A DNA stretch of 64,000 nt, from NCBI RefSeq assembly GCF_000801955.1, contig NZ_JSZO01000011.1, positions 62,001 through 126,000 of the forward strand, written 5' to 3'. A model generated the notes under the pieces. The model worked only from the letters and a program-made list of their open reading frames with translations. It was not told where the DNA came from and did no database searches. Of the stretch, positions 8,081 through 34,870 are shown one piece after another (position 1 is the first letter of the stretch; each line of letters begins with the position of its first letter). This stretch comes from Ralstonia sp. A12. GTDB lineage: Bacteria; Pseudomonadota; Gammaproteobacteria; Burkholderiales; Burkholderiaceae. The translations under genes were made by a program, and so were the position numbers.

Positions 8081-8742
8081 TGAGCGAGATGCACGATGGC
8101 GCCCACGCGCCAGCCGCAGAAGGTGCAGATCACGGCGATATGCCGGAAATGCTCCAGCGCATCGGCCACCTCACGCGCATGCTGCGCGAGAGCATGCGTG
8201 AGCTGGGCCTGGACAAGGGCGTGGAGAAGGCCGCATCGGCCATTCCCGACGCACGCGACCGCCTGAACTACATCGCCAACATGACTGAGCAGGCGGCCAC
8301 CCGCGTGCTCAACGCCATCGACGCGGCCCGCCCGGTGCAAGACGCGCTGGAATCCGACGCCGAGGCGCTGGTCAACCGCTGGCAATCGTGGATGGACCGC
8401 CAACTGGGCGATGACGAAATCCGTGATCTGGTTGGCCAGACCAACGGCTTCCTGCGTAGCGTGCCGGAAAAGACGCGCGACACGAACCAGCAGCTGATGG
8501 AAATCCTGATGGCTCAGGACTTCCAGGACTTGACCGGGCAGGTGATCAAGAAGGTGCTGGATGTCGTGCAACTGATTGAAAGTCAGTTGGTCGGCATCCT
8601 GCTGGAGAACGCACCTGAACATCTGCGCACGGAAGCATCGTCGTCGTCGCTGCTGAATGGTCCGCAGATCAATCCGGACCACCCAGACGTGGTGGGTAGC
8701 CAGGAACAGGTTGACGATCTGCTGGAAAGCCTCGGCTTCTGA
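8080..8742 (+). CDS. cheZ: CheZ, CheY-phosphate phosphatase
   Basis: CheZ is a dimeric four-helix-bundle phosphatase that removes phosphate from CheY. The catalytic helix reads AQDFQDLTGQVIKKV, with the active-site Gln and Asp in the usual places, and the C-terminus EQVDDLLESLGF is the CheY-binding tail. The ATG at 8080 overlaps the cheY stop; a GTG at 8077 directly before it is possible. Length is 220 residues, typical for the family. A 115-bp palindromic element begins three bases after the stop, followed by an intrinsic terminator. Confidence 0.96.
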   Translation: MSEMHDGAHAPAAEGADHGDMPEMLQRIGHLTRMLRESMRELGLDKGVEKAASAIPDARDRLNYIANMTEQAATRVLNAIDAARPVQDALESDAEALVNRWQSWMDRQLGDDEIRDLVGQTNGFLRSVPEKTRDTNQQLMEILMAQDFQDLTGQVIKKVLDVVQLIESQLVGILLENAPEHLRTEASSSSLLNGPQINPDHPDVVGSQEQVDDLLESLGF

Positions 8743-8745
8743 GAA

Positions 8746-8860
8746 CCTGTCCACGATCCTACTGCGCGTCCCGATCTTGGTCCTGTGATGCTCGCCGTAC
8801 CCGTGTACGGCTGCGCTTCTCGAACCAACCTCGGGCCGCTCGCTACGGATCGTGAACAGG
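8746..8860 (+). repeat. 115-bp palindromic element, copy 1 (after cheZ stop)
   Basis: The element is bounded by inverted ends CCTGTCCACGATCC and GGATCGTGAACAGG (13 of 14 pair) and contains an inner palindrome (GCCGTAC/GTACGGC). A very similar 114-bp copy lies at 34193-34306 on the other strand. Each copy begins three bases after a stop codon and reads in the direction of the gene it follows. It holds no coding frame and resembles a REP/MITE-type repeat or a transplanted 3'-UTR structure. Confidence 0.85.
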
Positions 8861-8897
8861 CTCTGAATCGGCTGTCAACGCTCCCCGTTTGCTGCCG

Positions 8898-26866: not shown

Positions 26867-27628
26867 ATGAACGAAGCGCCAAAGGCAGGCATGGATATGT
26901 ACACCGCAACCGGTCGCAAGACCAAGTCCGACGAGATGGCGACGTACGCACCGCTGGTGCGCCGCATTGCCAACCAGATGATGGTGAAGCTGCCGGCCAG
27001 CGTCGAACTCGACGATCTGATCCAGGCCGGCATGATGGGCTTGCTCGATGCGCTGTCGCGCTATGAAGAAACGCAGGGCGTGCAGTTCGAGTTCTACGCT
27101 GCCCAGCGTATCCGCGGCGCGATCCTCGATGAACTGCGTGGCTCCGACTGGCTGCCGCGCGGCCTGCGCCGCAACGCTCGCACGATCGAGCAGGCGATCC
27201 AGAAGCTGCAGCAGCAGAAGGGCCGCGCGCCCACCGAAACCGAGATTGCCGCCGCACTGGGCATGTCGCTGGCCGACTACCAGAAGCAACTGGTCGACCT
27301 GCAAGGCAGCCAGCTCCTGTACTACGAAGATTTCGACCGCGAAGACGCCGACGCTTTCATCGAGAACCGCGCTGCTGAGAACGATTCCACGCCGCTGGAC
27401 CAGTTGCTGGACCACGACCTGCGTGAATCGGTGGTGGCCGCCATCGAAGGTCTGCCCGAGCGCGAAAAGCTCATGATGAGCCTCTACTACGAGCAGGATC
27501 TGAACCTGCGCGAGATCGGCGCCGTGATGGGCGTGTCGGAATCGCGTGTGTGCCAGATCCACAGCCAGGCTATCGCCCGCATTCGCGCCCGTCTGCGCGA
27601 TCGTGCATGGCTGCCGACACCGACCTGA
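26867..27628 (+). CDS. fliA: FliA, flagellar sigma factor 28
   Basis: A 253-residue sigma-70 family factor that transcribes late flagellar and chemotaxis genes. Region 2 is clear (YAPLVRRIANQMMVKLPASV, LDDLIQAGMMGLLDALSRY, QRIRGAILDELRGSDWLPR), followed by region 3 and region 4 (LPEREKLMMSLYYEQDLNLR, EIGAVMGVSESRVCQIHSQ). The ATG at 26867 with GAGG upstream is preferred to a TTG at 26855. Its targets in this window probably include the promoters at 2650 and 7599. Confidence 0.96.
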   Translation: MNEAPKAGMDMYTATGRKTKSDEMATYAPLVRRIANQMMVKLPASVELDDLIQAGMMGLLDALSRYEETQGVQFEFYAAQRIRGAILDELRGSDWLPRGLRRNARTIEQAIQKLQQQKGRAPTETEIAAALGMSLADYQKQLVDLQGSQLLYYEDFDREDADAFIENRAAENDSTPLDQLLDHDLRESVVAAIEGLPEREKLMMSLYYEQDLNLREIGAVMGVSESRVCQIHSQAIARIRARLRDRAWLPTPT

Positions 27629-34114: not shown

Positions 34115-34192
34115 GTGTGCTCTCCTGATCGGGCCGGCGCAATGTGTGCGCCGACACCTTCAGTCGAGCAAGGCGCGTGCCGCGCTCAGAAT

Positions 34193-34306
34193 CTGCTCAC
34201 GATCCGTAGCGAGCAGTCCGAGGTTGGCTTGAGAAGCGCAGCCGTACATGTGTACGGCGAGCATCACAGAGCCAAGATCGGGCTGCGCAGTAGGATCGTG
34301 AGCAGG
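34193..34306 (-). repeat. 115-bp palindromic element, copy 2 (after yggT stop)
   Basis: This is the second copy of the element at 8746-8860. Its ends CTGCTCACGATCC / GGATCGTGAGCAG are perfect inverted repeats, and the middle holds the perfect palindrome GCCGTACATGTGTACGGC. Relative to the minus strand it starts three bases after the YggT stop codon (TGAaaaCCTGC), just as copy 1 follows cheZ (TGAgaaCCTGT). Confidence 0.85.
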
Positions 34307-34309
34307 TTT

Positions 34310-34870
34310 TCACATGAACAGCGGCGAGAGCGACAGATGCGACAGCGCGATCACCAGCACCTGCGCAATCACCAGCAGGATCAGCGGAGACAGATCCAGC
34401 CGCCCGCCCAGCGGCGGCACCACGCGGCGGATCGGGCGCAGCAGCGGGTCAACCAGCGTGTTGAGCACCGCGCCCATGGGCGATGCCGGGCCCATCCACG
34501 ACAGGATGGCCGACGCAATGGTCACCCACACCAGCACGTTGAATGCCCACTTGAGCACCGTGAATAGCGCTGCCACAAAGCCCCACGGCAGGAGCGCCAT
34601 CGGGCTCACACCCACAGAGGCCAGCAGCAGGAACAGATACACGAGCGCCGTGGCATAGGCTGCCACCAGCGAAGACCAATCGATGTAGCCCGTGGCCGGA
34701 ATGACCCGGCGCAGCGGATGCACCAGCCAGCCCGTCAACTGAAAGATGGCCTGCGACAGCGGGTTGCGCGGTGACAGCCGCACCGCCTGCGTCCAGGCGC
34801 GTATCAGCAGCGCTGCGCCAAAGAGCGAGAAGATCGTGTCGAGCAGAAAACGCGTGATGTCGCCGAACAT
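34310..34870 (-). CDS. YggT-family membrane protein
   Basis: A 186-residue inner-membrane protein with two YggT domains. Each has membrane helices and the family motif: PLSQAIFQLTGWLVHPLRRV and VLNTLVDPLLRPIRRVVPP. YggT proteins are linked to osmotic tolerance and, in Gram-positives, to division, with no defined biochemistry. The ATG at 34870 follows GGAGAC and is preferred to a start 11 codons upstream. The palindromic element follows its stop. Confidence 0.9.
   Translation of the reverse strand: MFGDITRFLLDTIFSLFGAALLIRAWTQAVRLSPRNPLSQAIFQLTGWLVHPLRRVIPATGYIDWSSLVAAYATALVYLFLLLASVGVSPMALLPWGFVAALFTVLKWAFNVLVWVTIASAILSWMGPASPMGAVLNTLVDPLLRPIRRVVPPLGGRLDLSPLILLVIAQVLVIALSHLSLSPLFM

What the first reader, a model, noticed from the sequence alone, without database searches (positions are those of the whole stretch)
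8746..8860. A 115-bp palindromic element sits right after two unrelated stop codons
Copies at 8746-8860 and 34193-34306 (114 bp) are very similar, with inverted ends (near CTGCTCACGATCC / GGATCGTGAGCAG) and an inner palindrome. Both begin three bases after a stop codon (cheZ, yggT) and read in the gene's own direction, although the genes are unrelated and on opposite strands. That placement suggests either an element that targets post-stop sites or a portable 3'-UTR structure affecting mRNA stability or termination.
Basis: seen in the sequence. Interest (0 to 1): 0.7.

Follow-up and report, generated by a model that had tools for sequence, protein, structure and literature searches.

The report
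Mobile palindromes planted on stop codons
The palindrome is a tiny jumping DNA element that lands on the stop signals of genes and copies the signal so the gene stays whole, and in this group of bacteria most of the copies examined point in the direction in which the gene is read.

Summary
Confirmed and sharpened. Each window copy is a 121-bp insertion (8743-8863 +; 34189-34309 -) with TGA on both sides; the left TGA is the stop codon of cheZ or yggT. The 15 other genomes of the genus lack both copies, and at yggT 13 of 15 read straight on, so the element inserted and duplicated TGA. Its ends resemble the IS1031 group of IS5-family insertion sequences, which target TNA; cousins in genus g9 carry matching TNA on both sides in 27 of 31 copies. 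So it is a MITE, and TAA/TGA stops are targets that survive insertion. That does not explain direction: of 20 copies in this genome 16 are sense and directly post-stop, one antisense; among 51 genus sites 35 are sense, 2 antisense. Janthinobacterium shows the same (20 to 0), Massilia (7 to 6) and g9 (4 to 6) do not. A g9 copy holds Rfam's 'sX9 sRNA' over its cut-off. Selection on the transcribed strand is my best guess for the direction. Against it: covariation shows no strand asymmetry and the antisense folds better.

The parts
8740..8742 (+). TGA: stop codon of cheZ and left copy of the 3-bp target duplication
   Evidence: sequence; CheZ PF04344; site empty in 15 of 15 other genus genomes
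8743..8863 (+). element copy 1, 121 bp
8743..8759 (+). left terminal inverted repeat GAACCTGTCCACGATCC
   Evidence: sequence; resembles the 17-bp end of ISLrh, IS1031 group
8847..8863 (+). right terminal inverted repeat GGATCGTGAACAGGCTC
   Evidence: sequence
8760..8846 (+). core with conserved mismatches
8794..8811 (+). inner palindrome GCCGTAC-CCGT-GTACGGC
   Evidence: sequence and fold
8864..8866 (+). TGA, right copy of the target duplication
34310..34312 (-). TGA: stop codon of the yggT-family gene and 5' copy of the target duplication
34189..34309 (-). element copy 2, 121 bp
   Evidence: clean empty site in relatives
34186..34188 (-). TGA, 3' copy of the target duplication
8170..8742 (+). 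part of cheZ as scanned (start codon not determined), with stop
   Evidence: PF04344
34310..34903 (-). yggT-family gene as scanned, with stop
   Evidence: PF02325
8897..8919 (+). separate terminator-like hairpin with T-rich tail behind copy 1

Best explanation
The element is a non-autonomous miniature transposon (MITE) of IS1031 type (IS5 family), moved in trans by a transposase that was not found here. It inserts at TNA and duplicates those three bases. TAA and TGA stop codons are TNA, and an insertion there restores the stop, so the gene stays whole. Shown: insertion, 3-bp duplication, spread over the genus, patchy presence, strong sense bias in Ralstonia and Janthinobacterium but not in Massilia or g9, a conserved core and arms that vary but stay complementary. 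Inferred: the sense bias arises after insertion, because the core's sense strand in the transcript, 0-5 nt behind the stop in most post-stop copies, is tolerated or useful there and the antisense strand is not. By analogy with REPs within 15 nt of a stop, reported to hold up ribosomes and lower translation, and with orientation-dependent ERIC effects, the likely effect is on translation termination or decay of the upstream cistron, not on transcription termination.
For: Empty sites and TGA duplication at yggT, TAA duplication at the L011 site. TNA on both sides in 27 of 31 g9 cousins. End GAACCTGTTCACGATCT agrees at 13 of 17 bases with ISLrh, IS1031 group, TNA target (passage of PMC12016507). 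In the genus, TNA at offsets 0, 1, 2 behind the right end in 20, 30, 32 of 92 copies, at offsets 3-7 in 0 to 3. Direction: own 16 sense, 1 antisense, 3 other of 20; genus 35 against 2 sites, p=1e-8; Janthinobacterium 20 against 0. Direction is absent in g9 (4 against 6) and the Massilia group (7 against 6), so it is not built into the target. REP and ERIC analogies: passages of PMC12306157 and PMC2229807.
Against: No strand signature: outside two fixed U-G pairs G-U 53 against A-C 69 cells, and the antisense strand folds better in 91 of 96 copies. At shared sites the core (92.6% identical) is hardly better kept than the right flank (90.6%), 85 pairs. 12 of 51 genus sites are not at a stop; one is kept in five genomes and is antisense to both neighbours. 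Copies with other arms (L014:8560, L023, L024) show no TNA duplication, and at L024 some flank was replaced. No transposase with these ends among 8 PF13340 loci.
Confidence: 0.6

Rival explanations
1. Plain selfish MITE without function: TNA target plus loss of harmful insertions gives the placement, and the direction is a by-product of history (few master insertions, gene conversion between copies).
For: TNA target; patchy presence: of 66 orthologous ends in five relatives 7 carry a copy and 59 do not, 3 of these with apparent remnants; core not better kept than flank; no direction bias in g9 and the Massilia group.
Against: 35 against 2 separate sites in the genus; TNA stops are few among TNA triplets outside genes (41 stops, 829 intergenic TNA in the window, rough gene calls that overstate intergenic space), and intergenic space away from stops is little used.
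Confidence: 0.22
2. Direction-specific insertion: in Ralstonia and Janthinobacterium the enzyme, or coupling to transcription or replication, inserts the element in one direction relative to the stop codon.
For: Bias is already strong in copies that five relatives lack.
Against: TNA is symmetric; g9 cousins insert both ways; at 'neither' sites the right-hand triplets include TGA, TAA and TCA, so no purine rule is seen (read).
Confidence: 0.13
3. Portable transcription terminator.
For: Strong hairpin directly behind stop codons.
Against: No T-run; 6 of 16 own post-stop copies have a co-directional gene 8-58 nt on, among them behind a 2-oxoacid dehydrogenase E2 gene and an ahpC-like gene.
Confidence: 0.05

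Closest known systems
IS1031 group of the IS5 family (ISLrh; PMC12016507, passage read)
   Same: 17-bp end GAACCTGTCTAGTATCT, 13 of 17 bases as in the g9 cousin; TNA target, 3-bp repeat, TGA in that case
   Different: ISLrh is 857 bp with a transposase; ours is 121 bp without a gene and has a structured core
sX9 sRNA, Rfam RF02228 (PMC9029176, PMC6337395, PMC10924375: passages)
   Same: matches the 3' half of a g9 cousin over the cut-off (48.5 bits, cut-off 44) and shares GCUCGCUACG with the window element
   Different: the window element itself scores only 18.9; Rfam's model holds 76 positions, one arm and the centre, and is filed as an sRNA, not as a mobile palindrome
ERIC / RU-1 (PMC2229807, PMC2759123: passages)
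   Same: 127-bp palindromic MITE, transcribed, effect on upstream mRNA reported to depend on orientation
   Different: other sequence and ends (TATA...); the resemblance of its centre was judged by eye only
REP / BIME and REPINs (PMC3733652, PMC12306157: passages)
   Same: palindromes at gene ends; GTAG-REP ends may supply TAG stops; REPs within 15 nt of a stop reported to affect translation
   Different: 20-40 bp units; no RAYT relation shown here; ours has IS5-type ends and target duplication
YPAL / RU-2 of Yersinia (PMC2229807 section 11 read, PMC2759123 passages)
   Same: about 168-bp mobile palindrome, empty and filled sites known, possible effect on upstream transcripts
   Different: target duplications of 3-26 bp; sequence in PMC2759123 not compared by program
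MITE in avrA of Ralstonia solanacearum (named in the review PMC10969869, passage)
   Same: a MITE in the same genus

Membership tests
MITE | short, no coding capacity, terminal inverted repeats | tested here: met
   121 bp with 17-bp ends that pair
MITE | target-site duplication and empty sites | tested here: met
   yggT, L011 site, 27 of 31 g9 cousins; not met by the few copies with other arms
MITE | autonomous partner with the same ends in the genome | tested here: inconclusive
   8 PF13340 loci in 8 genomes, none with these ends; other transposase families not searched
IS1031 group (IS5 family) | TNA target with 3-bp repeat | tested here: met
IS1031 group (IS5 family) | ends like those of group members | tested here: inconclusive
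   13 of 17 bases with one member named in one paper; no end collection compared
sX9 (RF02228) | covariance-model score over 44 bits | tested here: not met
   window copy 18.9 bits, L009 and L023 21.6 and 21.8; none in the own genome. A g9 cousin meets it, 48.5 bits
intrinsic terminator | stem-loop followed by a T-run | tested here: not met
REP/RAYT | RAYT (Y1 transposase) gene with flanking copies | not tested
   no search for RAYT was run
cis-acting 3'-UTR element | orientation-dependent effect on the upstream gene | not testable with these tools
   needs expression data

The most novel reading that the evidence does not exclude
A transposon-carried RNA module: IS5-type MITEs of beta- and gamma-proteobacteria share a structured core, known in part as the sRNA sX9, that they plant on stop codons; in some genera the core works in the sense strand as a portable, direction-specific device at the point of translation termination, so that a selfish palindrome has become a 3'-UTR regulator of many unrelated genes.
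Probability: 0.3. Interest if true: 0.8.

Novelty: new variant of a known kind. Interest (0 to 1): 0.6.

Why it matters
It shows how a transposon can settle at gene ends without breaking genes: its target is the stop codon and the duplication restores it. The one-sided direction then needs a second force, which makes a testable case either of selection on transposon RNA at the terminating ribosome or of insertion tied to reading direction. It also suggests that some annotations of sX9, listed among the twenty most frequent bacterial sRNAs (passage of PMC9029176), are half of a mobile palindrome.

Tried and rejected
Terminator: no T-run, operon-internal copies. Known Rfam family for the Ralstonia element: none over its cut-off at the element. 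Copies on phages or plasmids: no match for the window copy (blastn, E up to 1); the g9 cousin finds 3 plasmid records. Transposase with these ends: 8 PF13340 loci, none fits. Stop-free sense strand: dropped; 28 stops in three frames over 20 copies, antisense 62, shuffled mean 49. Sense-RNA selection seen as G-U wobble: not seen. Extra conservation of the core at shared sites: not seen. That the E. coli relatives are the RSA repeats is recall only; the paper search gave nothing. Literature: the listings showed no description of this element in Ralstonia; the library lacks most subscription journals.

Limits of the counts: the 92 genus copies are the 20 of this genome plus listed best matches from relatives, not each copy present; copy numbers are lower bounds (capped scoring). 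Genes were called from open frame and GC by codon position, not annotation. The g9 direction count was read by eye with frames of 100 codons or more, leaving out one antisense stop 7 nt off (L260); 3 of 31 G059 matches and 1 of 4 G023 matches were not fetched. In one search the L019 end matched two loci in each of two genomes. Alignment A3 was fitted to the model's structure and holds two reverse-strand rows of 98.

Full report
What is there. The two window copies are 121-bp palindromes, 8743-8863 (+) and 34189-34309 (-), each with TGA on both sides. The upstream TGA is the stop codon of cheZ (PF04344) and of a yggT-family gene (PF02325). The genome (6.1 Mb, 60 contigs) holds 20 copies by DNA search. 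A covariance model built from them finds the same 20, many again on the reverse strand, and one more hit at E=1.7.

Spread. 16 of 16 genomes of the genus have it. In 200 genomes of the family 24 have a match, 16 of them the genus; 5 of 25 genera. By plain DNA search 18 of 41 relatives.

It is an insertion. At yggT none of the 15 other genus genomes has the copy; 13 of 15 read straight on...TTCATG TGA GCGCGGC... or close to it, where this genome reads ...TTCATG TGA [121 bp] TGA GCGCGGC...; the other two have diverged there. At cheZ none of the 15 has it either, with small indels around the point. Fourteen further post-stop copies were followed into five relatives: 13 of 14 sites were found, 66 matching ends; 7 carry a copy, 59 do not, 3 of these with apparent remnants. 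The L011 site shows a clean TAA duplication. At L024 the relatives end in GAC AAG TAA and this genome in GAC TGA: there the new end supplies the stop and some flank was replaced. At L021 the right flank no longer resembles that of the relatives.

What kind. One small genome of genus g9 (G059) has 31 matches, of about 145 bp. Of 31 g9 copies examined (28 from G059, 3 from G023) 27 have the same TNA triplet on both sides: TTA, TAA, TCA or TGA. Their end GAACCTGTTCACGATCT agrees at 13 of 17 bases with that of ISLrh, an IS1031-group member of the IS5 family, a group that inserts at TNA with a 3-bp repeat (passage of PMC12016507). In the genus itself TNA begins at offsets 0, 1, 2 behind the right end in 20, 30, 32 of 92 copies and at offsets 3-7 in 0 to 3. 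No transposase with these ends turned up in a limited search. I call it a MITE of IS1031 type, partner unknown.

Where it sits. In this genome 16 of 20 copies stand directly behind a stop codon in the sense of the gene, 1 at the stop of a gene on the other strand, 3 elsewhere, one of these just behind a cobalamin riboswitch. In the genus 92 copies fall into 51 sites: 35 sense, 2 antisense, 2 both, 12 neither; sense against antisense p=1e-8. Sense stops are TAA 37, TGA 22, TAG 12 of 71, against TAA 8, TGA 33, TAG 10 of 51 genes called in the window. TAG is not TNA, so those 12 are not explained by the target alone. Ten of the sixteen upstream genes were named by Pfam and are unrelated: CheZ, YggT, solute-binding protein, threonine synthase, AhpC, amino-acid kinase, aldehyde dehydrogenase, acyl-CoA dehydrogenase, 2-oxoacid dehydrogenase E2, FolE2. 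Of the 16, 6 have a co-directional gene 8-58 nt on and 6 face a convergent gene 13-277 nt on.

The controls that make the direction interesting. The g9 cousins also hit stop codons, but both ways: 4 sense, 6 antisense, 2 both of 31; against the genus, Fisher p=5e-4. Janthinobacterium: 28 = 20 sense, 0 antisense, 5 both, 3 neither. Massilia group: 20 = 7, 6, 2, 5 (sites shared by strains not merged). So one-sidedness belongs to some lineages, not to the element as such, which speaks for a host-dependent force: selection, or different insertion machinery.

RNA or DNA. On 98 aligned copies 28 of 42 pairs show changes on both sides, 324 such cells against 70.5 in shuffles (none of 500 reached it) and 33 to 65 in slid controls. 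Some copies have quite different arms that still pair, and at one orthologous gene the arms differ between species (L171 against L178, L157, L200). The core keeps the same pyrimidine-pyrimidine mismatches in nearly all 96 sense rows. But outside two fixed U-G pairs G-U (53) is not commoner than A-C (69), and the antisense strand folds better in 91 of 96 copies; at shared sites core, outer arm, right flank and gene end are 92.6, 88.8, 90.6 and 95.6% identical. At the riboswitch site flanks are identical between L181 and L025 while 13 of 84 core positions differ, as if the core had been exchanged. Complementary arms can also come from template switching inside palindromes (established knowledge, not tested); one G023 copy has the same centre with about 40 bp of different, nearly perfect arms, which fits that. 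So the covariation shows a kept palindrome, not by itself a kept sense RNA.

The sX9 link. Rfam's sX9 scores 18.9 on the window copy and 21.6 and 21.8 on two others (cut-off 44), 24 to 33 bits on five of six further loci tried, and 48.5 bits at G023:C23:26998-27072, inside the palindrome at 26934-27081. In 41 relatives 2 have sX9 over the cut-off; the own genome has none. By a chain of weaker matches (G023 cousin to a Yersinia plasmid over 64 bases, then to enterobacteria) related centres were also seen directly behind queA in Salmonella, sense, and between xylA and xylB in Yersinia and pyrH and frr in E. coli, antisense; a Comamonas plasmid copy lies directly behind a 3-hydroxyacyl-CoA dehydrogenase gene, sense. 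5375 of 5426 E. coli genomes match the Yersinia sequence in part, none over 80% of it.

How it may work. Step 1, insertion at a TNA stop codon by an IS5-type transposase: sites and duplications shown, enzyme inferred. Step 2, the gene survives because the stop is restored: shown by sequence. Step 3, the transcript carries a long hairpin, 0-5 nt behind the stop in most post-stop copies: follows from sequence, transcription not tested. Step 4, this changes termination, ribosome release or decay: inferred from REPs within 15 nt of stops (passages of PMC12306157) and ERIC (passages of PMC2229807). Step 5, only the sense form is kept in some genera: bias shown, cause inferred.

Noticed in passing
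L025:3853-4241 and orthologous copies L181, L113: A copy sits directly behind a cobalamin riboswitch (78.5 bits), before the downstream gene; flanks identical between two species while the core differs at 13 of 84 positions.
   Followed up: partly
L479 (G023:C478:10695-10748): The same centre carries about 40 bp of quite different, nearly perfect inverted arms.
   Followed up: no
L143-L146 (four genomes of genus g3): One copy behind the stop of what looks like the same gene in four genomes, with arms unlike those of Ralstonia.
   Followed up: partly
L193, L151, L176, L168, L205: An intergenic copy, antisense to both neighbours, kept at the same place in five genomes, unlike the post-stop rule.
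   Followed up: partly
L486:1480-1630 (Klebsiella aerogenes record): Enterobacterial relative with ends GAGCCTATC...GATAGGCTC and TAA on both sides, again a TNA-like duplication.
   Followed up: no
L484, L485, L488 (E. coli pyrH-frr): A related palindrome without annotation lies between pyrH and frr in E. coli; partial matches number 1 to 8 per genome, median 5.
   Followed up: partly
L025:2622-2841 (-): 6S RNA match (50.1 bits, cut-off 46.4) about 1.2 kb before the riboswitch copy.
   Followed up: no
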